Shown: positions 7,228-20,198 of the stretch, in pieces | Layout of the letters: every line of letters starts with the position of its first letter | Numbering within the stretch: position 1 is the first letter of the stretch | IMG/VR virus record: IMGVR_UViG_3300029309_000378 | Location: 1 to 22,479 of that record | DNA length: 22,479 nt | Origin: a virus | Reading direction: 5' to 3' (one strand) | Program-made: the position numbers and the translations under genes | The notes under the pieces: model-generated | The model's database searches: none | Told to the model about the DNA's origin: nothing | What the model saw: only the letters and a program-made list of their open reading frames with translations

Positions 7228-8135
7228 TGGCAGTAGATGAAACCATACAAACCGTCAGGGAAAGTCCTGAGATTGAAGCCTATCGGATAGGCCTATTAAA
7301 ATCAGCAAAAGAGTTAGCCGATCAGCCTATCACTTTGCCAACACAACAAGTAGCAGGGCTCACGGGTCTACAAGAGGCTGCTAGAAAGCAAGCCGAAGCA
7401 GGTATTGGAGATTTTTTACCATTTATTACTGCGGGTGGTCAGACTTTAGGTCAGGCAAGTCAAACACTTGGTGGTGTTGAGTCAGCTTTAAGAGCTGGGT
7501 CGGGTCCAGTTACACAAGAACTTTTAAATACTTACATGAACCCTTATCAACAGGCTGTTTCTGATGAGATAAACCGTGCTTATGATATGCAACTTAGTGG
7601 AACAAGAGCTGGAGCGGTAGGCTCAGGTGCTTTTGGTGGTTCACGGGCACAAATAGCAGAGTCAGAAATTGACAGAAACAGAGCTTCTGCGTTAGCACAG
7701 GCACAGGCACAAAACTTTTTACAAGCACAACAAGCTGCGGAAAGAGATCTTGCTAGGCAAACACAACTAGGTAGTGGCATTGCAGCTCTATCGGGACAAC
7801 AAGGACAATTAGGTTTAAGACAGGCAGCTCTTGGGGAAACAGGTCAAGCACTGCAACAACGAGACACAGAAAGTGCGTTTAGACTTGGCCAGTTGTTACA
7901 AGCTCAAGATCAAGCAACATTAGACGCAGAAAGACAAAGTAATTTGGCACAACTTTATGAGCCATATCAAAGACTAGGTTTTCTTGGCGATGTGTATAGT
8001 AAGACTCCGACCTCCCAGTCTACTATTACACAAGCCAGTTCACCTAGCGTATCACCGTTTCAGCAATATTTAGGCCTCGGTATTGCAGGATTATCAGCGG
8101 CAGCAGGGGCAAATAGAGCGGGGTTATTTGGATGA
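7227..8135 (+). CDS. Putative internal virion protein, Ala/Gln-rich helical, 302 aa
   Basis: This 302-residue protein is almost entirely helical and rich in Gln and Ala between residues 140 and 245, with long runs free of Pro that should form coiled coil. Conserved-looking landmarks are MNPYQQAVSDEI (104-115) and the glycine-rich AVGSGAFGGSR (130-140). From memory, that pair recurs in structural proteins of marine podoviruses. The C terminus (about 282-302) is a small-residue hydrophobic tail, LGLGIAGLSAAAG, that could contact a membrane. The gene sits between two other putative ejection proteins and overlaps both (TAATG at 7225-7229, ATGA at 8132-8135). By position it is the analogue of the smaller T7 internal core proteins; direct homology is not claimed. 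Confidence 0.6.
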   Translation: MAVDETIQTVRESPEIEAYRIGLLKSAKELADQPITLPTQQVAGLTGLQEAARKQAEAGIGDFLPFITAGGQTLGQASQTLGGVESALRAGSGPVTQELLNTYMNPYQQAVSDEINRAYDMQLSGTRAGAVGSGAFGGSRAQIAESEIDRNRASALAQAQAQNFLQAQQAAERDLARQTQLGSGIAALSGQQGQLGLRQAALGETGQALQQRDTESAFRLGQLLQAQDQATLDAERQSNLAQLYEPYQRLGFLGDVYSKTPTSQSTITQASSPSVSPFQQYLGLGIAGLSAAAGANRAGLFG

Positions 8136-10423
8136 TGAATAGAGCATTATTACAACGACAGATGTTTGCCAATGGTGGTAGAGTCATACCTGATGATGCA
8201 AAAGGTTTACAGGCTTTAGCAGCAGAGCGACCAGATGTTGTAAAAAAAATGGGATTTAAGCCAATGCAGGAGGGTGGTCTTGCAGGTTTAATGCAACAAC
8301 AGGACATGGCAGCCATGCCTATGGGATCACCACCAATGGATCAGCCACCGATGGCAGCACAAGGCGGGGTAGACCCAAATATTTTAGCCTCTACATTAAG
8401 TAACGTAGCAGAAGATACTGGAGACTTAGAGCAAGCTTCAGACTTTCAATCTATGATGAACCAGTTCTCTGGTGAAAATAAATCAGAAGAAGAAAGACGA
8501 GATGATTTAGCCAGTATAGTTGGATCAGAAGACGCAGCTCAAACACCAGATAGTGTTTTGGCTCTAGTTACTCCAATAGTTCAAATTAGTATGGCAGAAG
8601 AAGGCATTGCACCGATGGCTCGCGAGGCAATGGATACACCAGTTGAAGGCGATATGGCTGGCGGAATAATGAGCATGACGGGGGCTGGAAACGAACCACC
8701 CGAAAATTTTAGGTATGGCGGTGAGGTTCGCCGCCGTGGAGACGAGGACCCAGTTTTAAAATTTAGTAATGGAGCCGGAGTACCATCTGTTGGTGGCTTT
8801 TCAAGAATACCTACGACGGAGGACCGTTTAAATAACTTGTTATTACAAAACTTAGCTTTAGCTCAAAATCAAAAAAAACTTCAAGCTTTGAGTGCCTTGC
8901 CAAAAGTAACGCCCGCTAGAGATTTAAAAACCATATTTGAAGAAAAAAAAGATTTATACGGTAGTCTACTTGGTGACTCAGAAGAGCAAAAAAGATTAAC
9001 GCAAGCTCAAATGTTGTTTGACATAGCTAATACAGCTTTGACTTTTGCAGCTCCCATGCCTGGTGAAAAGCCCGGTATGTCTGCTGCTGAAAGACTAGCT
9101 ATGGCAGCTACTACTACAAAGTTAGCCCCAACAATAGGAGCAAGAGCAGCACAATTATCTGCTGATAAACGTAAGTTAGACCTTGCCGCTTTACAAGCAG
9201 CTGAAACTACACAAGCGGCTGAGAAAAAATCAGCCTTAGAATTGCAGAAAAAATTAATAGATAGAAAGAGTAAAACTATTACAGTTGGAGAAAACCAAAA
9301 AGTAATTAATCTCGATGGAGACGTACTTGCAACAGGCCCCACTAAAAAAAGAGTTTTAAAACCGGGCGATAGCCTTTATGACAATGACAATAATTTATTG
9401 CTTACGGTTCCGCCTAAACCAAAATTCAGTGTTGTAAAAGGTCAATTAGTTAAAACAACAGAGGATAGTTCAGGTCAAACTAAAAGTGTGCCCATTTTTG
9501 GTACACGAACACAAGAGAAACCAAACTTACATAGAATAATATACCCAGCAGGCACAACAGAGATTGTTGACGTAAATAGTGAAAGCGGTTTAAACGCTGT
9601 AACTAACGCACCATCGGGTGCTCAGGTTGTTAAAATTGCAGCAGCAAAAACACCAGACCCTACACCAATGTTGTTAACAGGTAGCAACAAAGTTGTAATG
9701 AGCTATGATGGCGGTAAATCATATACAAATGATAGTGGACAGAAAGTCGATATAGCTCCGGGCACAGGTTTTGCTATTAGTGCAGACAAGTCTTATGATG
9801 TTTATAAATCAGAAAAAGTTAGAGCTGACGCTAAAAAAGCTTTAAACAACATGAAATCTAAAAATTATGAAGTCTTTACTCAAGGTATACCACCAGAGCT
9901 TAAAAAAGATTTTGATCAAGTACAAAAAATGGTGCTTGATGGAACGGGTTTTTACTCAAACGTAAGAGCCGGTTTGATGGTAATAGATGGATTTTTACCA
10001 GATACCGTGCAGTTAAAAGACTTCTTCGGTAGCGGCACAGATACAACACAGGCACGACAATACCTTAAAACTATAATAGCTTTAGGAAGATCAGCTCTTG
10101 TAAAAAACAACAAGTTCCCAGTAAAAGAAATGGATTTTATGAAAGAGTTATTCATAGACCCTGAAACTTTATTAAATGATCCTCGACAAGAACTCGAAAA
10201 AATAAAAAATTTAAGAGACACTTTGATAGCTCAAAAAGGTTTTAATCTATCTAAGTTAGCCTCAGGAGACACAGGTGGTAAAGAAAATGATTTAATAACT
10301 AACAATAGTGAAATAGATAGACTTATCTTTTTGTTAGGTGGATTTGATGTAACCTCAGGAGGTGGTTCATCAAATGTTAACAGAGGTCAAATTTTAAAAA
10401 ATATAATTAAACCGGTGAACTAA
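8132..10423 (+). CDS. Putative internal virion protein, 763 aa
   Basis: This encodes 763 residues in three visible parts. Residues 1-200 are low complexity, rich in Met, Gln and Pro, and contain four Gly-Gly motifs: FANGGRV (12-18), MQEGGLA (45-51), MAAQGGV (74-80) and FRYGGEV (193-199). They also contain the acidic-helical TPDSVLALVTPIV (138-150). Residues about 225-400 are helical with long Ala/Lys-rich stretches and probably coiled coil. The last 200 residues form a compact helical region with many charged residues (KFPVKEMDFMKELFIDPETLL). There is no signal peptide or enzyme motif. Two consecutive Met codons lie at the start (8132 and 8135). The first overlaps the upstream stop as ATGA and is preferred, though either is possible. 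Assigned as an ejection or internal protein from context only. Confidence 0.55.
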   Translation: MMNRALLQRQMFANGGRVIPDDAKGLQALAAERPDVVKKMGFKPMQEGGLAGLMQQQDMAAMPMGSPPMDQPPMAAQGGVDPNILASTLSNVAEDTGDLEQASDFQSMMNQFSGENKSEEERRDDLASIVGSEDAAQTPDSVLALVTPIVQISMAEEGIAPMAREAMDTPVEGDMAGGIMSMTGAGNEPPENFRYGGEVRRRGDEDPVLKFSNGAGVPSVGGFSRIPTTEDRLNNLLLQNLALAQNQKKLQALSALPKVTPARDLKTIFEEKKDLYGSLLGDSEEQKRLTQAQMLFDIANTALTFAAPMPGEKPGMSAAERLAMAATTTKLAPTIGARAAQLSADKRKLDLAALQAAETTQAAEKKSALELQKKLIDRKSKTITVGENQKVINLDGDVLATGPTKKRVLKPGDSLYDNDNNLLLTVPPKPKFSVVKGQLVKTTEDSSGQTKSVPIFGTRTQEKPNLHRIIYPAGTTEIVDVNSESGLNAVTNAPSGAQVVKIAAAKTPDPTPMLLTGSNKVVMSYDGGKSYTNDSGQKVDIAPGTGFAISADKSYDVYKSEKVRADAKKALNNMKSKNYEVFTQGIPPELKKDFDQVQKMVLDGTGFYSNVRAGLMVIDGFLPDTVQLKDFFGSGTDTTQARQYLKTIIALGRSALVKNNKFPVKEMDFMKELFIDPETLLNDPRQELEKIKNLRDTLIAQKGFNLSKLASGDTGGKENDLITNNSEIDRLIFLLGGFDVTSGGGSSNVNRGQILKNIIKPVN

Positions 10424-13400
10424 TGAGTTTAGAATTAAAACCTGTAATACTAGATCAACCTCAAATTAATGAGTTTTATGAAAATTATGGGGCAGGAGAC
10501 AATGTAGTAATTGACGGTGTGGATAAGTATATGCCGATCGAAGAGATTATTGCAAGAGACGTTGTATCAAAATCAGGAGTACAATCACCGGGATTATTTA
10601 CATATGATACCTTAAAAGATGGTACAGCTTTATTTTTTGATAAAATACCTGAGTTCAAGACACAAACTCCCGGTCAAAGAAGATTTAAAACAAACGATGA
10701 AATTATTAATTTTTTAGCTAGAACATCACAGGGTGAAGAACTTCAATTTGGCACGATGCTTGAGGGATTTAAAAGAGATATTTTGCCACAAGGTTTATCG
10801 CTAACAGGAGCTGTTACTGGTGCTAAATTAAGTTCACAAGTTGCAAAAAATGTCCCAAGTGTAATTGGCAAATTTGGAACAGTTGCTGGCGGAACTATAT
10901 TAGGGGCCTTTGGTGGTTATGAAGGTGGCGAGTTATTAACTTCTCAACTATTTGGTGATGAGAAAACTATATTACCGGGAACTCGTAAAGCATACGCCGC
11001 TGGTAAAACAGCAGCTGGTGCATTTGCATGGTTGCCAACACCTTTTTTAATATCAAAAAATGTAGATTTTGGCTCTGCTAAGTATTTAGATAATTTAGTA
11101 GAAACTTTAAAAAAAGGACCTTTAACTCCTGCGGATTACAAAAACAAAGATTTAGTAAAAAGTTTAGCTAAAGGCAAAGGACCTAATGTCATACGTTTAA
11201 TTAACGGTATAGAAAAAATGCTGACCTCATCAAAGAAGTTTGCAGTAAAACGTCCTGTTTCTACTTTAGCTGTTGAAGGACTAGTAGGTGTATCACAAAC
11301 AGGCTTTGGCGGTTTTGCAGAACAGACAAAACCGGGCGAAACATTGCCAAGAATAGGGTATGAGCTTGGTGGATCTATTGTCCCGGGTGTAGCAGGAACT
11401 TTACTTATTGACCGTATTGGTGCAATAAAAGACGCTCTTGTTAATATGTTTGGTCGAGCTAAATCTGCAAAAGATAAAGGACTTTTTGCCAGTGCAAGAG
11501 AGGGGATCTCGTTTTTAAAAGAAAAAAGAGAGATGGCTGGTGCAAAAAAGATTTTAGAGTTGCTTGAAGAACAGGGCGAAATTGATCCGTCTTACTTTAA
11601 AGATCAAACAAAATTTAATGCTCTTATAGAAAAATTGAGTCAGGTTGGTGGTAAATTAGATCCTTCAGTACAGCTGACCGCAGGATTAAAAGCAGATAGT
11701 CCGGTGCTCATGGCCATCGAAGCTTCTTTAGCACAAACCAACAGAGGTTTAGGCAAGCAACAGAAATCAGCAATGTCGCAACAAGGTACAGCTATAAGAA
11801 ATGTTATTGTAGCATTAATTAAAACAGGTGATAAAGCTGCCATTAAAGAAGCAATGAAATTATCAGAAGCTCTTTTTTCAGATGCCTTGACACACAGATT
11901 ACACAATGCGACAAAGTTAGTGTTAGATTCTTTTGAAACAGTAAAGGGTAAAGACCCAGCTTCAAACGCAGAGCTTGGTGAAACTTTATTTAAAATGATA
12001 CAGGCACAATTTGTGCTTGGTCGTAAACAAGAAAAAGATTTATGGACTAAAGTAAGGTCCGTTAATTTAGAAAATTTTAAAAATGATATTGGCGAAGAAG
12101 TACCATTGCCTAATTTTATACAAGTTTTCAAAGATGAGTTTGCAGGTCCTGATAACCCTAAAGAATACAGAGAGTTTTTTGCAAAAAATTTAAGGCCTTT
12201 ATTTGCATTTGCTAACAGGAAATCAAGAGAACTTGGCTATGGTGATATAATTGATCCTAAATTATTAGATGAAACAGCCGCAGCAGGTCCAGATTTAAGT
12301 AAATTTGATCAAAACATAGATTCGTTTTTAGCAAGAGGATCATTAAAGGGACGCACAGATAATCTAGTTTTAAATATGGTTAATGAACAGTTGCGATATT
12401 TAAATTTACCTGAGATAGGTAAAGATGAAATATCTAAACTTAAAGACGTTAATACATTTTCTAGAGACGATCTTCTTAGAATACAAAGTCATTTTGCAGA
12501 ACAAAATAATTTTCCAAAAAAATATGGAACTGACGAAGCTGCTTTAACAAATGTCAGAGCCAGAAGAAGTCAATATAATACAGCTAAATCCATATTTAAA
12601 GATTTACTACGAAAACTTGATGCTACACCAAAAGGTGCTGTGGCGAGTGAGGCGGAAGAAGCAACAGGCACTATAACATCTAAAGAACTTATTAAAATGA
12701 GAAGTTTGGCTCTAAGCCTTCAAAGAGGACTGTCAGGACCTAACGGTAATTCTAAAGCAGCAGGCTTTGCAGGGAAGTTCGCCAAGGCTATTTTAGATGA
12801 TTTAGATTCTTATGAAGAGGGTTTAAATGTTGATTATGATGCAGCAAGAGCGTACTCCAAAGCATTTAACAAAGTTTATACAAATACTTTTGCAGGAGAT
12901 GTTTTACAAAAAACATCAACAGGTGTTGTAAAAAACAACCCTGAAACTTTAGCAGACAAACTTTTTTCTGGTAGTGCAGACGCGACAAATTTAAGAGTTA
13001 AGCAAATATTTAACCTCGGCAAGTTTGCAGATGAAAACAATTTAGAAGGTGCCGCAGATTTACCAAACTCAGTAACAGGTGTACTTACAAAGATATTAAG
13101 AAATGCTAAGGCAGCTGCTTTAGATCCTACGACAGGTAATTTAAATGAAAAAGCATTAGCAAGATGGATGGAAACAAATAAAGAGCTTTTAGACTCTCAA
13201 GCCTTTCAAGGATTAAGAGATGATTTAACTGATTTTAATACAGCCAGAGTTTTACTTTCAAATGTCAAAGATAAAAACAAGAACTTACAGAAAAAATTAG
13301 ACAATCAACTTTTCTTTAAAAATGTTTCAGGAGGTAAATCAGCGGAAAGCCCAGTCATTACAGCTGGAGAAGCCATCGTAGGTAGAAACCCAACACGAGA

Positions 13401-15258
13401 TATTAGAAATTTAGCTCGTATCGCTAATGCTTCATCAGATCCAAAAAAAGCTTTAGACGGGTTATATACATCAATCCTTGAGTATGCCATGACAAAAGCG
13501 GGAGGAACAAGTCAATCTTTTAGTCCTCGTGCCTTTTACGACACAGTCTTTTCTGAAATGCCTAAAGCTTTAAGGTCAACAAACCTAGCAGACTTGATGA
13601 TAAAAAACGGCATAGCCACAGAAAAACAAATGAATGGTGTCAAAAGATTTGTTACAGAGTTAGTTAAGTTTGAAGCTATGGAAGCTGCTGGTAAGTTTGG
13701 TATTGGAGATTTAGCCGATGACGTTAATGGTGTCCTTGGTTTCTATTTAAAAATATCAGGTGCCTCAATTGGTCAAGCTATTGCTGCAAAAATGCCTTTA
13801 CCTGGTTCAAGGGGCATGGGTACAGGTCTAATTGAATCACAGGCCGGTGTACGAATAATGGAAAACATATTCAGAGATGTTCCTCAGAGTATGAAAATTG
13901 ACGTCATGGCAGAACTCATGGCCGACCCAGTGAGACTATCTCAAATGTTACAAAAGGCTAGAACGAAAGAAGAAGCAAAACAAATTGGCGATGCTTTGAT
14001 TGGCTGGATGTACTCAAGTGGTTTTAAACCTTTAAAAAGAATTACACCAACCGTCATAAGAGAGGTTGATGAAGAAGTTACAGGACCAGAATTTCAAGAA
14101 CAGAGTTCTGTCCAGTCCAATCAACAGGGGTTTCCCACCACCCAGATTGGACAAGGACTAAATAGCGGTGTGAACAACCGCCTCGCGGCTAACGTGGGGA
14201 CACCCCCACCAGCCGCGTCTATTGATAGAACCAAGTTTGCATCATTGTTTCCAAACGATCCCATATCAGGTTTAATAAATGCTCAACAACAGGGTAATAC
14301 ACAATTTATGGAATATGGCGGTGTAGCTGGCGATCCTTCATATGACATGGGACTTGAAACAGATGTTACAGCCCAACAAGCTATACAATCTGCTTTAGAA
14401 AATAACACAACAAATGATAACGATGTAGCTGTTGAAGCTAAGGTTAAATTACCAAGCACTTTTACATTAAACCAAGGAAACAAAGCTTCAGGGATCACTA
14501 CCATAGCAAATCCATATGTTCGACAAATGTTTGATTTTGTCACAAAATATAAACCTTCTATCAGTATGCCAGAGGGCGGAGGCATACAATTTGGTATTAC
14601 AAAAACATTTCAAGATGGTGGCTTTGTCGATGATTTAGAGGGAGATCCTTCTGACTATGGTATGACCCAAACTGATTTTGACTTTGCCACCAACGTAGGT
14701 CAACAGACAGGTGGTTTTGGTGATGACAATACAGCTCAATCTATAGCTAATTATATTGCAGAGCCACAAGTCGGATTAAACAGATCAAATATTCGAGGCA
14801 TGGCAAATTTTGATCCACAATATGCAGCTGCCTTAAAAATAAAAGCTGGTTTAGATCCTACAAACGCACCCTCATATGGAATAAGTGGCTTAGGTGTCAG
14901 TAATCAACCGATGATTGGAGGTTTGCCTGTACCGTCTTATTCAAGACCACAAATTGAAGGTGAGATAGATGGGAAAAAAGCAATGTTTAATTCTCGTGGC
15001 GAACAGGTATTACAACAATATTTACCCGGAATCGTTAAACAAGGAATGGACATGGGCATCATGGGTCTAGCAAGAAAAGGTTTTGATATTTTTAGCAGAT
15101 TATTTGGTGGTGGTGAAGAGGTCACGCCACAAAAAATAAAAGCACGAGATAAAAATATTACAGCTAATGACATAATCGGGAACCCTAACTATTCAATCAA
15201 TATAAGACGTCTAGCAGGAGAACCCCTCTCCGATATTTTAAAAAGTAGGAGCCGATAA
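10423..15258 (+). CDS. Giant internal virion / DNA-ejection protein, 1611 aa
   Basis: At 1611 residues this is the largest protein here and the positional analogue of the giant inner-core protein of short-tailed phages such as T7 gp16. No lytic transglycosylase motif is visible. Three Gly/Ala-rich hydrophobic stretches lie in the first 350 residues: about 125-175 (with GTVAGGTILGAFGGYEGG), about 190-215 (TAAGAFAWLPTPFLI) and about 285-335 (GLVGVSQTGFGGF). Together they suit insertion in the host membrane. The middle 850 residues are helical and charged. A disordered linker at about 1225-1275 is encoded by an unusually GC-rich stretch with two hairpins. The C-terminal third contains FMEYGG (1295-1300) and FQDGGF (1396-1401), each followed by a GDPS unit, an internal duplication. 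It is TAATG-coupled to the previous gene and abuts the peptidase gene. Confidence 0.65.
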   Translation: MSLELKPVILDQPQINEFYENYGAGDNVVIDGVDKYMPIEEIIARDVVSKSGVQSPGLFTYDTLKDGTALFFDKIPEFKTQTPGQRRFKTNDEIINFLARTSQGEELQFGTMLEGFKRDILPQGLSLTGAVTGAKLSSQVAKNVPSVIGKFGTVAGGTILGAFGGYEGGELLTSQLFGDEKTILPGTRKAYAAGKTAAGAFAWLPTPFLISKNVDFGSAKYLDNLVETLKKGPLTPADYKNKDLVKSLAKGKGPNVIRLINGIEKMLTSSKKFAVKRPVSTLAVEGLVGVSQTGFGGFAEQTKPGETLPRIGYELGGSIVPGVAGTLLIDRIGAIKDALVNMFGRAKSAKDKGLFASAREGISFLKEKREMAGAKKILELLEEQGEIDPSYFKDQTKFNALIEKLSQVGGKLDPSVQLTAGLKADSPVLMAIEASLAQTNRGLGKQQKSAMSQQGTAIRNVIVALIKTGDKAAIKEAMKLSEALFSDALTHRLHNATKLVLDSFETVKGKDPASNAELGETLFKMIQAQFVLGRKQEKDLWTKVRSVNLENFKNDIGEEVPLPNFIQVFKDEFAGPDNPKEYREFFAKNLRPLFAFANRKSRELGYGDIIDPKLLDETAAAGPDLSKFDQNIDSFLARGSLKGRTDNLVLNMVNEQLRYLNLPEIGKDEISKLKDVNTFSRDDLLRIQSHFAEQNNFPKKYGTDEAALTNVRARRSQYNTAKSIFKDLLRKLDATPKGAVASEAEEATGTITSKELIKMRSLALSLQRGLSGPNGNSKAAGFAGKFAKAILDDLDSYEEGLNVDYDAARAYSKAFNKVYTNTFAGDVLQKTSTGVVKNNPETLADKLFSGSADATNLRVKQIFNLGKFADENNLEGAADLPNSVTGVLTKILRNAKAAALDPTTGNLNEKALARWMETNKELLDSQAFQGLRDDLTDFNTARVLLSNVKDKNKNLQKKLDNQLFFKNVSGGKSAESPVITAGEAIVGRNPTRDIRNLARIANASSDPKKALDGLYTSILEYAMTKAGGTSQSFSPRAFYDTVFSEMPKALRSTNLADLMIKNGIATEKQMNGVKRFVTELVKFEAMEAAGKFGIGDLADDVNGVLGFYLKISGASIGQAIAAKMPLPGSRGMGTGLIESQAGVRIMENIFRDVPQSMKIDVMAELMADPVRLSQMLQKARTKEEAKQIGDALIGWMYSSGFKPLKRITPTVIREVDEEVTGPEFQEQSSVQSNQQGFPTTQIGQGLNSGVNNRLAANVGTPPPAASIDRTKFASLFPNDPISGLINAQQQGNTQFMEYGGVAGDPSYDMGLETDVTAQQAIQSALENNTTNDNDVAVEAKVKLPSTFTLNQGNKASGITTIANPYVRQMFDFVTKYKPSISMPEGGGIQFGITKTFQDGGFVDDLEGDPSDYGMTQTDFDFATNVGQQTGGFGDDNTAQSIANYIAEPQVGLNRSNIRGMANFDPQYAAALKIKAGLDPTNAPSYGISGLGVSNQPMIGGLPVPSYSRPQIEGEIDGKKAMFNSRGEQVLQQYLPGIVKQGMDMGIMGLARKGFDIFSRLFGGGEEVTPQKIKARDKNITANDIIGNPNYSINIRRLAGEPLSDILKSRSR
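14115..14152. repeat. Inverted repeat inside the giant ejection protein gene (hairpin 1)
   Basis: GTCCAATC (14115-14122) and GATTGGAC (14145-14152) are perfect 8-bp inverted repeats separated by 22 bases. The loop itself contains GGG-TTT-CCC. It lies in coding sequence for a Gln/Asn-rich linker and forms the left part of a GC-rich patch. Confidence 0.75.
14184..14217. repeat. GC-rich hairpin inside the giant ejection protein gene (hairpin 2)
   Basis: CGCGGCT (14184-14190) pairs with AGCCGCG (14211-14217), and inside it GTGGGG (14194-14199) pairs with CCCCAC (14204-14209). That gives 13 pairs around an ACAC loop, with a small AAC/C internal bulge. The surrounding 60 bases (14161-14220) are 39/60 GC in a gene that is otherwise clearly AT-rich. 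It is not followed by a T-run and lies in mid-gene, so it is not a normal terminator. Confidence 0.85.
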
Positions 15259-17829: not shown

Positions 17830-18669
17830 ATGGCAGAATCAGTAGTAAAAAAAGAGCAACAACAAGTTGCAACACTAGATTTCAGTATGGTTGAAGCCGA
17901 CTCAGGTCTAGGTAATAGAGAAGTCGATCAAGAGACTTTAAGTATTCCGTTTTTGAAAACGAACTTATCAAAGCAGATACTTGAAGCTAATCGAGGATCT
18001 GTATCAGGCGATATGTATAATACAGTGACTGGTGAGATCTATGATAGAGAGAAAGGCGTGTTGGTTTTACCTTGTGTATTTCAAAGACGTTTTATTCAAT
18101 GGTCTCCTCTTGGTGATGAGCAGAGTGCACCAATAGCTATATATTCTACTAAAGAAGAATGTCCAGCTACAGAAAGATCTAAGGAAGATAATAAAGAATA
18201 TCTTACCGATGGGTCAGGTCACTACATCGAAGACACTCATCAGCATTACTGTTTAATTATTAAGACTGATGAAAACGGTAAGCCGACTGGAGCTACAGAT
18301 GCTGTTATGATTGCTATGAAGAGCACTTCTCTTAAAGCAAGTCGTAAATGGAATAGCATTATATCCACAAGACGTAAGCAGAAAGCTGACGGATCTATGT
18401 TTATACCGCCAAGGTTTCTATATACTTATAGCCTTGGTACCTACATGGAAAGTGGACGTAAGGGTGACTATTTTGTTTGGGATATGAAGCTGAAAGAAGA
18501 GCTAACGAATATAAACCTTTATAATGAGGCAAAGGCTTTTGCTTTATCTGTTGAGCAGAATAATGTTAATGTAAAATATGAGCAAGAGGAACCTCAAGCT
18601 GAAGCATCAAAGCCTGCATCACCGCCAAAAGCTGAAGTTAAAGGCGGTCAAGAAAATATGCCATTCTAA
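17830..18669 (+). CDS. Putative single-stranded DNA-binding-like protein, 279 aa
   Basis: This 279-residue protein has a globular part of about 245 residues and a Pro/Ala/Ser/Glu-rich disordered linker (about 250-272) ending in GGQENMPF. That build (core, flexible linker, acidic-x-P-F tip) is what bacterial SSB and several phage ssDNA-binding proteins use to recruit partners. The core has beta-rich segments (KGVLVLPCVFQRRFIQWSP, 75-93; HYCLIIKTDENG, 139-150) and a basic patch KASRKWNSIISTRRKQK (169-185) suited to nucleic acid. No classical OB-fold signature is provable by eye. It sits between the coiled-coil protein and the primase, with TAATG coupling to the latter. The SSB role is inferred from the tail and context; a different replication accessory is possible. 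Confidence 0.45.
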   Translation: MAESVVKKEQQQVATLDFSMVEADSGLGNREVDQETLSIPFLKTNLSKQILEANRGSVSGDMYNTVTGEIYDREKGVLVLPCVFQRRFIQWSPLGDEQSAPIAIYSTKEECPATERSKEDNKEYLTDGSGHYIEDTHQHYCLIIKTDENGKPTGATDAVMIAMKSTSLKASRKWNSIISTRRKQKADGSMFIPPRFLYTYSLGTYMESGRKGDYFVWDMKLKEELTNINLYNEAKAFALSVEQNNVNVKYEQEEPQAEASKPASPPKAEVKGGQENMPF

Positions 18670-20198
18670 TGTGGGAGACTTTTAGTTCAATATTTGGTGG
18701 ACTAGAAGAGGCGTTTGGCACTTATAAGATAGATAAGACCCAAACCAATGGTAAGAAGTCCGGTAGAGCGGCTCTCGTTAGGGAGCCACGGACCAAGGAT
18801 CATTGGGTGGGTCATCTGTCAGGTAAAGGGGACTCTCTAGGTATCATACCGATCAATGCACAATCACAGTGTAAGTGGGGTTGTATTGATATTGATACCT
18901 ACCCTCTTGACCATAAAGTTCTTATCGAGAAGATAAGAAAAGTAAAACTACCACTGGTTGTGTGTCGTTCCAAAAGTGGTGGGGCACATTGCTTTCTATT
19001 TAGCGAAGACTGGATAGAAGCAAAAGATATGCAACAGACCTTACAACATATATCAGCTGCTCTTGGCTACGGCCAAAGCGAGATATTTCCAAAACAAATT
19101 AAATTACATTTAGATCGTGGCGATGTAGGTAATTTTTTAAACTTACCGTATTATGACGCAGAAAGTGGCCTTAGATACGCGATAAAGGATGACGGCACCT
19201 CTGCCACCTTAGAAGAGTTTATCGCCCTGTACGATCAATATAAGCTCAATAACGAGCAGATACTGGCATTACAAGTAGAAGACATAAAAGATACACCGAT
19301 TAAAGATGGGCCACCATGCTTACAGACTTTATGTGAAAGTAAAATCAGTGAGGGCGGGCGTAACAACGGACTGTTTAACCTTGCTGTTTACTTACGCAAA
19401 GCGTTTCCTGACAGCTGGGAGACAGAGATACTAACTTACAACATGACCTACCTTGATCCACCACTACCATTAAGTGAGGTCAACCTCGTTGCTAACCAAG
19501 CTAAGAAGAAAGACTATGCTTATAAATGCTCAGACAGTCCGATCAATGCACATTGTAACAAAGAACTATGCAGAACGCGACTACATGGCGTAGGATCGGC
19601 CGTACAAGGGGCAACAGTCGCTAATTTAAGAAAATATAACTCAACACCGCCAGTTTGGTTTTTGGACGTCTCAGGGGAGCCCCTAGAGCTAGACACAGAA
19701 GCACTGCTGTCACAGCCTACGTTTCAGAAAGCCTGCATGGAACAGCTTAACTTCATGCCACGCTCTGTACGAAAAGAGACTTGGGAAGCACGGATCAGTG
19801 CTTTGCTTAATGAGATGAAAGAAAATGATGCAGCTATTATAGAAGTAGCTGAAGATGCAAGCACAAGCGGACAGTTCTACGATTACTTAGAAGAGTTTTG
19901 CAGACACTTACAGCAAGCACAGGAAAGAGAAGAGATATTGTTAAGACGGCCTTGGACCGATGAAGAGGCACACTTAACTTACTTTCGACTAAGAGACTTT
20001 GAAAACTTTCTCAAAAAGAATAAGTTTTTTGAGTACAAGTCGCACAAGATTGCCCAACGCTTACGGGATATTAACGGGTCCAGTACGGTTATGAAAATCA
20101 GTAACCGATCCGTACGCGTTTGGGCAATACCCGCACACCGTAACACGGATCACGAGTTTAATACACCAAATTTACAAACAGAAAAGGAGCCTTTTTAA
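18669..20198 (+). CDS. Archaeo-eukaryotic-type primase (AEP/PrimPol-like), 509 aa
   Basis: This 509-residue primase should make primers for phage DNA replication. The AEP core covers about 1-180. Motif I is GCIDIDTYP (Asp74 and Asp76, metal binding), motif II is SKSGGAHCFLF (101-111, His107), and EIFPKQ (138-143) and GNFLNLPYY (154-162) follow. This set resembles the primases of TOTE-type systems and many phages. A C-terminal region has PPCLQTLC (215-222), GGRNNGLFNLAVYLRK (229-244) and a Cys set at 287, 296 and 301 (YKCSD, HCNKELCR), like the accessory domain that binds a metal or Fe-S centre. The last 180 residues are helical with a winged-helix look (about 425-490) and end in EKEPF. No helicase domain is fused; helicases are encoded separately. 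It is TAATG-coupled on both sides. Confidence 0.8.
   Translation: MWETFSSIFGGLEEAFGTYKIDKTQTNGKKSGRAALVREPRTKDHWVGHLSGKGDSLGIIPINAQSQCKWGCIDIDTYPLDHKVLIEKIRKVKLPLVVCRSKSGGAHCFLFSEDWIEAKDMQQTLQHISAALGYGQSEIFPKQIKLHLDRGDVGNFLNLPYYDAESGLRYAIKDDGTSATLEEFIALYDQYKLNNEQILALQVEDIKDTPIKDGPPCLQTLCESKISEGGRNNGLFNLAVYLRKAFPDSWETEILTYNMTYLDPPLPLSEVNLVANQAKKKDYAYKCSDSPINAHCNKELCRTRLHGVGSAVQGATVANLRKYNSTPPVWFLDVSGEPLELDTEALLSQPTFQKACMEQLNFMPRSVRKETWEARISALLNEMKENDAAIIEVAEDASTSGQFYDYLEEFCRHLQQAQEREEILLRRPWTDEEAHLTYFRLRDFENFLKKNKFFEYKSHKIAQRLRDINGSSTVMKISNRSVRVWAIPAHRNTDHEFNTPNLQTEKEPF

What the first reader, a model, noticed from the sequence alone, without database searches (positions are those of the whole stretch)
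14110..14220. GC-rich island with two hairpins inside the giant ejection-protein gene
Seen: 14161-14220 is 39/60 GC and 14101-14160 is 31/60, in a gene that is otherwise strongly AT-rich. Two inverted repeats sit side by side: 8+8 bp at 14115-14152, and a very stable 7+6 bp compound stem at 14184-14217. They encode a Gln/Asn/Pro-rich linker (about residues 1231-1266) between the helical body and the C-terminal Gly-Gly-motif region. Inference: either a small palindromic element inserted in frame into a tolerant linker, as known for palindromic elements inside Rickettsia ORFs, or an RNA structure that slows ribosomes between domains or marks an mRNA processing site.
Basis: partly seen in the sequence, partly recalled or inferred. 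Interest (0 to 1): 0.68.

Follow-up and report, generated by a model that had tools for sequence, protein, structure and literature searches.

The report
Conserved RNA hairpins inside phage gene
A short stretch in the middle of a marine phage's DNA-injection gene is kept almost letter-perfect, even where the protein would allow changes, because it folds into three hairpins; it also marks the spot where these phages carry different gene pieces on either side, so it is probably a working RNA element hidden inside a protein gene.

Summary
The GC island and its hairpins are real. They are the most stable 120-nt stretch in the window (-54 kcal/mol) and beat every synonymous re-coding tried. There are three hairpins, not two: 14110-14158, 14165-14181 and 14184-14217. 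Twelve other viral records (one nearly the window itself) carry the element, once each, in frame, at the same place.

Nucleotides, not amino acids, are conserved. The four closest sequences differ at 0-2 of about 32 synonymous sites in the island, against 8-15 of 37 in the next 57 codons, and seven of their eight variable columns lie outside stems. More distant copies keep the hairpins through paired changes and re-paired arms.

It is not an inserted palindromic element: single copy, absent elsewhere, and relatives without it have a linker at least as long. No recombinase, integrase, reverse transcriptase, Rfam family or overlapping frame explains it.

It lies at a module joint. Gene bodies upstream (20-57% identical) and tails downstream differ between phages that share it.

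Best reading: a cis-acting structured RNA in the ejection-protein mRNA, acting on translation or mRNA processing at the body/C-terminus boundary. The structure is shown, the function inferred. The recombination-joint role may be cause or by-product.

The parts
14104..14223 (+). Three-hairpin element (40 codons, SSVQSNQQGFPTTQIGQGLNSGVNNRLAANVGTPPPAASI) in the linker of the ejection-type protein
   Evidence: Most stable 120-nt window; synonymous sites frozen; found once per carrier record by covariance model
14110..14158 (+). Hairpin 1: outer helix 14110-14113/14155-14158, inner helix 14115-14122/14145-14152, large G-run/C-run loop
   Evidence: arms replaced but re-paired in L016 and the L111-L116 group
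14126..14144 (+). Invariant loop of hairpin 1, AGGGGTNTCCCACCACCCA
   Evidence: used there as the search pattern, so its invariance in L102-L110 is biased; the protein scan brought in the same records
14165..14181 (+).
   Evidence: paired changes C-G to G-C (L016) and T-A to G-C (L111, L115, L116)
14184..14217 (+). Hairpin 3: 7-bp stem 14184-14190/14211-14217 and 6-bp stem 14194-14199/14204-14209
   Evidence: T-A to U.G to C-G series at 14190/14211
10423..15258 (+). Host gene: 1611-aa ejection-type (DNA-transfer-like) structural protein
   Evidence: ORF; 25% identity to DSL-LC04 'DNA transfer protein'; gene 7227-8135 matches PHROG 4287 DNA ejection protein
10423..14103 (+). Body module upstream of the element; deeply different types in phages with the same element
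14224..14295 (+). C-terminal motif (FASLFPNDPISGLINAQQQ), the end of the protein in relatives without the element
14296..15258 (+). Variable tail with Gly-Gly motifs added after the motif; unrelated types in L112 and L113

Best explanation
A cis-acting structured RNA element of three hairpins is embedded in frame in the disordered linker of an ejection-type structural protein in a clade of about 60-kb marine phages. Selection holds the nucleotide pairing; the linker peptide is largely a passenger (shown by comparison). In the messenger it most likely forms a strong block just after the body has been translated and before the C-terminal motif and added tail. There it slows ribosomes at the domain boundary or serves as a recognition or processing site on the late mRNA (inferred). 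Because it is the only nucleotide-identical stretch between divergent bodies and tails, it also serves as the joint at which these modules have been exchanged (incongruent body, island and tail types shown; mechanism inferred).
For: Stability beyond synonymous re-coding in the window and its four closest relatives, weaker in the second group. In the four closest sequences synonymous changes are 0-2 of about 32 sites in the island against 8.5-15 of about 37 in the next 57 codons, while amino-acid-changing rates are like the neighbours'; five of six pairs have Fisher P below 0.002. The island is the lowest-pS 40-codon window of the gene in L008-L009 (0.06 against mean 0.63), L112-L113 (0 against 0.41) and L111-L113 (0.16 against 0.56). 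Variable columns avoid stems, 7 of 8 unpaired, P=0.015. RNAalifold finds hairpins 2 and 3 on its own with both-sided changes at three pairs. The three-hairpin structure has 92% of cells paired against 83% in shuffles and 35-49% when slid; the covariation score is reached by 0 of 500 shuffles. Other reading frames are closed by stops in all ten sequences checked. The linker is modelled as disordered, at low confidence.
Against: No expression data. Both strands fold about equally well. Wobble pairs fit + strand RNA at four places and - strand RNA at two or three, so strand and even RNA versus DNA are not decided. The sequences fall into three groups, so independent paired changes are few (about five). 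Most of hairpin 3 never varies and says nothing by covariation. In the second group the energy is only mildly better than GC-matched synonymous versions (z -1.4 to -2.1), and the arm test of hairpin 1 is not significant in L115 and only marginal in L016 and L116.
Confidence: 0.5

Rival explanations
1. DNA-level module-exchange site: the hairpins form in DNA (single strand or cruciform) and promote or guide recombination, so that bodies upstream and tails downstream are swapped at this point.
For: Homology between phages with a 95%-identical backbone stops at 8764 and restarts at 14093-14096, at the element's edge. Three deep body types occur in one backbone and recur in the other. L112 and L113 share the body (94.7%) and an identical island but have unrelated tails. 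One contig ends inside the element.
Against: No resolvase, tyrosine integrase or reverse transcriptase in carrier records up to 60 kb. Plain homologous recombination needs identity, not pairing. The other edge of the exchanged cassette, near 8764, shows no synonymous freeze. An element frozen for another reason would become a joint anyway.
Confidence: 0.2
2. Selfish palindromic element inserted in frame into a tolerant linker (Rickettsia-type).
For: In frame, about 120 nt, hairpin-forming, in a disordered linker.
Against: One copy per record at one place; no copy found in genome contigs; linker not longer than in relatives lacking it; strong nucleotide constraint after arrival.
Confidence: 0.05
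3. Recent sharing only: the island is alike because it was spread recently by recombination, with no structural constraint.
For: It sits at exchange boundaries.
Against: Amino-acid-changing differences are as frequent as in neighbours while synonymous ones are missing, which recency cannot give; differences avoid stems; arms are replaced yet re-paired.
Confidence: 0.05
4. Genome-level signal such as a packaging (pac/cos-like) or replication site that needs these inverted repeats in DNA.
For: Single copy per genome, conserved nucleotides, inverted repeats.
Against: Lies mid-gene inside the structural module; relatives HTVC027P, DSL-LC04 and L122 have no copy; no end-of-genome data.
Confidence: 0.1
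5. Recoding signal (frameshift or bypass) that makes a short form without the tail.
For: Relatives end at the motif just after the island; a frameshift inside the island would stop within about 120 nt.
Against: The ORF is open straight through in all carriers; no conserved slippery heptamer seen by eye ahead of the stems; a shift would cut before the motif, not after it.
Confidence: 0.05

Closest known systems
Rickettsia palindromic elements (RPE; Ogata et al. 2000, 2002, as reviewed in PMC10969869)
   Same: About 100-150 bp, hairpin-forming, read in frame inside a protein gene, in a tolerant region.
   Different: RPEs are repeated families inserted in many genes; this is single copy, one locus, no added length, and under nucleotide-level constraint with paired changes.
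PeSL promoter-terminator stem-loop cassettes of T4-type phages (Arbiol et al. 2010; Comeau et al. 2014, cited in PMC4503421)
   Same: Conserved stem-loop sequence lying between exchangeable phage modules.
   Different: PeSLs pair an early promoter with a terminator stem-loop and, to my knowledge, lie between genes in many copies; this lies inside one ORF, once, without promoter or terminator.
Conserved motifs that act as joints for swapping adhesin modules in T-even tail-fibre genes (Tetart et al. 1998, cited in PMC3797505)
   Same: Intragenic conserved stretch at which protein modules are exchanged.
   Different: From memory, those motifs are conserved as protein (glycine-rich, His-box); here the nucleic-acid structure is conserved, and the protein is an ejection-type protein.
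Cis-acting RNA structures inside viral coding regions (synonymous-constraint elements, e.g. HIV RRE, RNA-virus coding elements; general knowledge)
   Same: Frozen synonymous sites, covarying stems, in-frame overlap with coding sequence.
   Different: Known mainly from RNA viruses and retroviruses; this is in a dsDNA phage structural gene and matches no Rfam family.

Membership tests
Cis-acting RNA structure in a coding region | Suppressed synonymous variation against the same gene's average | tested here: met
Cis-acting RNA structure in a coding region | Helices supported by paired changes | tested here: met
   few independent events, hairpin 1 changes register between groups
Cis-acting RNA structure in a coding region | Forms in the messenger and has a function there | not testable with these tools
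   No transcript, probing or mutant data; strand undecided
Rickettsia palindromic element | Repeated, dispersed copies in the genome | tested here: not met
   One copy per carrier record; none in genome contigs by hairpin-3 pattern
Rickettsia palindromic element | Extra in-frame insertion relative to homologues | tested here: not met
   Linker of L122 and DSL-LC04 is as long or longer without it
PeSL cassette | Promoter plus terminator stem-loop between genes | tested here: not met
   Inside an ORF; promoter-like and terminator-like counts at chance level, none in the island
Site-specific recombination site (gix/cix-like) | Cognate serine or tyrosine recombinase encoded by the phage | tested here: not met
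   No PF00239 or PF00589 match in 7 carrier records of up to 60 kb, some incomplete
Diversity-generating retroelement target hairpin | Reverse transcriptase in the same genome | tested here: not met
   No PF00078 match
Known Rfam family | Covariance-model match | tested here: not met
   No match up to E=5 in the region; only a sub-threshold hit elsewhere in the window
Programmed recoding signal | Open alternative frame or stop to be bypassed | tested here: not met
   Frame 0 is open through; +1 and -1 frames closed within the island or just after it in all copies checked

The most novel reading that the evidence does not exclude
These phages maintain a purpose-built structured joint inside the ejection-protein gene: a three-hairpin element whose pairing is under selection because it directs or tolerates exchange of 5'-body and 3'-tail modules in frame while also working on the mRNA, i.e. 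an intragenic shuffling site defined by nucleic-acid structure rather than by protein motif or recombinase site.
Probability: 0.15. Interest if true: 0.85.

Novelty: new variant of a known kind. Interest (0 to 1): 0.62.

Why it matters
Structured elements inside coding sequence are well known in RNA viruses but rarely looked for in DNA phages, because coding DNA is usually set aside in RNA-motif searches. Here the nucleotide pairing, not the protein, is what is kept across phages whose gene bodies are only 20-57% identical. This gives a concrete, testable case of RNA-level (or DNA-structure-level) control inside a phage structural gene, and a possible reason why phage protein modules join where they do. 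A second, similar element in the primase gene of the same phages suggests the case may not be isolated.

Tried and rejected
Rfam over the region and the whole window: nothing relevant. Annotated phage genomes: no relative of the island or C-terminal half; full protein only 24-25% to DSL-LC04 and one uncultured phage. Genome contigs: 63 candidates, none confirmed, and no exact hairpin-3 hit. attC-like reading of hairpin 3 by eye: the AAC is not kept (AAT, AAA in relatives), dropped. DGR and recombinase readings: no enzymes. Overlapping gene: frames closed. Intrinsic terminator: none in the island. Similar islands in the equivalent genes of HTVC027P, DSL-LC04, L020, L021, L030, L033: none. Left edge of the exchanged cassette (about 8764): GC-rich but synonymous sites vary freely. 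L122's own Pro-rich linker: GC-rich, one 120-nt window with z -3.1 but not a homologue of the element. Loop 1/hairpin 2 loop kissing interaction (by eye): not kept in relatives. w-L010 gene-wide pS was uninformative because parts of the body were recently exchanged.

Full report
Observation. A third hairpin, 14165-14181, lies between them, and hairpin 1 has an outer helix, so the element is three hairpins in a row over 14110-14217. Of 746 windows of 120 nt in the 22-kb record, 14101-14220 has the lowest folding energy, -54.2 kcal/mol, and the lowest z-score of a coarse scan. Against synonymous versions of the same peptide it stands at z -9.2 (gene codon usage), -3.7 (codon permutation) and -5.0 (GC-matched), with none of 500 reaching it. 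Third-position GC is 0.55 against 0.22 in the rest of the gene, so the GC comes from codon choice, not only from the amino acids.

Gene and anatomy. The ORF 10423-15258 (1611 aa) has no Pfam or PHROG match, but it is 25% identical to the 'DNA transfer protein' of Phage DSL-LC04 over residues 216-1284, and the gene at 7227-8135 matches a DNA ejection protein family. In DSL-LC04 and in record L122 the protein ends with the same motif that follows the island here (..MFQSLFPMDIVSSLPS*..ATLFPNDPISGLINSRQQGPR*), preceded by a Pro-rich linker. So the plan is body, linker, C-terminal motif; in the window's group the linker carries the hairpins and the protein runs on into an added tail. AlphaFold gives helices up to the body end and then disorder through the linker, at low overall confidence.

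Carriers. Protein and DNA scans of IMG/VR found twelve records besides the window with the element; one is 99.97% identical to the window. A covariance model of ten copies finds exactly one full copy in every carrier record, at the same place and strand of the gene (one carrier is cut off inside the element), and none in L122, DSL-LC04, HTVC027P or the more distant L020, L021 and L030. Seven of the records first came in through a DNA pattern taken from the loop of hairpin 1, which biases that loop towards looking invariant; a later scan by protein motif only brought in the same records plus L122.

Selection on nucleotides. Between the four closest sequences (window, L008, L009, L010) the 40 island codons differ at 0-2 synonymous positions of about 32, while the following 57 codons differ at 8.5-15 of about 37 and the next gene at pS 0.26-0.39; amino-acid-changing differences are as frequent in the island as next to it. 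Fisher P is below 0.002 in five of six pairs. Seven of the eight variable columns are unpaired in the window's fold (P=0.015). Gene-wide, the island is the lowest-pS 40-codon window in L008-L009 (0.06 against 0.63), L112-L113 (0 against 0.41) and L111-L113 (0.16 against 0.56). This is the reverse of ordinary protein constraint. An overlapping gene is excluded on the + strand, since the other two forward frames carry stops in or just after the island in all ten copies checked.

Structure kept through change. L016 aligns without gaps but has replaced both arms of hairpin 1, which re-pair, and has turned C-G into G-C in hairpin 2; folded alone it gives the same three hairpins. In the L111-L116 group hairpin 1 uses TTGCC/GGCAA instead of CCAATC/GATTGG, hairpin 2 has T-A changed to G-C in three copies, and hairpin 3 shows T-A, U.G and C-G at one position. 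RNAalifold on ten copies finds hairpins 2 and 3 unaided with three both-sided pairs. Counting on the full three-hairpin structure gives 92.3% of cells paired (83.1% in shuffles, 35-49% when slid) and a covariation score reached by 0 of 500 shuffles. Limits: the copies fall into three groups, so independent events are few; two of the both-sided pairs in hairpin 1 mix pairing registers; most of hairpin 3 never varies; and in the second group the folding energy is only mildly better than GC-matched synonymous versions.

Module joint. Phages with a backbone 94-99% identical to the window's (M15 peptidase to primase) lose all DNA similarity at 8764 and regain it at 14093-14096, at the first bases of the element. 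Three deeply different body types occur within this backbone, and each has a counterpart in the other backbone. Downstream, L112 and L113 have bodies 94.7% identical and identical islands but tails with no similarity. So the island and the short motif behind it form a fixed joint between exchangeable parts. No resolvase, integrase or reverse transcriptase was found in seven carrier records, so ordinary homologous recombination at the only conserved stretch is the simplest account. Whether the structure promotes this or merely keeps the stretch identical is open.

Mechanism. What is shown: a selected three-hairpin nucleic-acid structure, in frame, single copy, at a domain and module boundary. 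What is inferred: that it works in the messenger. Wobble pairs at 14165/14181 and 14190/14211 and two in L016 fit + strand RNA, but other mismatches fit the opposite strand and both strands fold well, so this is a lean, not a proof. The likeliest action is on translation or processing of the late mRNA between body and C-terminal motif. I put that at about one half, a DNA recombination-joint role at one fifth, a packaging or replication signal at one tenth, and the rest on minor rivals.

Comparison. It works somewhat like synonymous-constraint RNA elements of RNA viruses; it is not a Rickettsia palindromic element (PMC10969869 describes those as repeated families), not a PeSL cassette (as cited in PMC4503421), not a known Rfam family, and lacks the enzymes for site-specific recombination or diversity-generating retroelements. 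I class it as a new variant of a known kind.

Noticed in passing
window 18729-18825 (+), inside the primase-like gene 18669-20198: A second coding-embedded structure: one long bulged hairpin (about 30 bp), -48.9 kcal/mol, z -5.5. Synonymous sites nearly frozen (0-3 of 29 against 44-53 of 220 in the rest), and much of the stem is kept in L112, L113 and L116, though the top of the stem is not.
   Followed up: partly
window 8764-14096: A 5.3-kb exchangeable cassette (C-terminal two thirds of gene 8132-10423 plus the body of the ejection-type protein) with at least three deep types in one phage backbone.
   Followed up: partly
window 14296-15258: Tail of the ejection-type protein with Gly-Gly motifs is an added, exchangeable extension; relatives L122 and DSL-LC04 stop before it.
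   Followed up: partly
L102 11809-11827 (contig end): The contig ends inside the hairpin-1 loop of the element, as expected if assembly breaks where several body types share the same joint in one population.
   Followed up: no
window 1-22479: The window is near-identical (99.97% over 12 kb) to IMGVR_UViG_3300030101_001822 (49.9 kb); nearest named phages by the SNF2 helicase are DSL-LC04 (55%), 023Pt_psg01 (53%) and pelagiphages HTVC027P and HTVC023P (47%).
   Followed up: no
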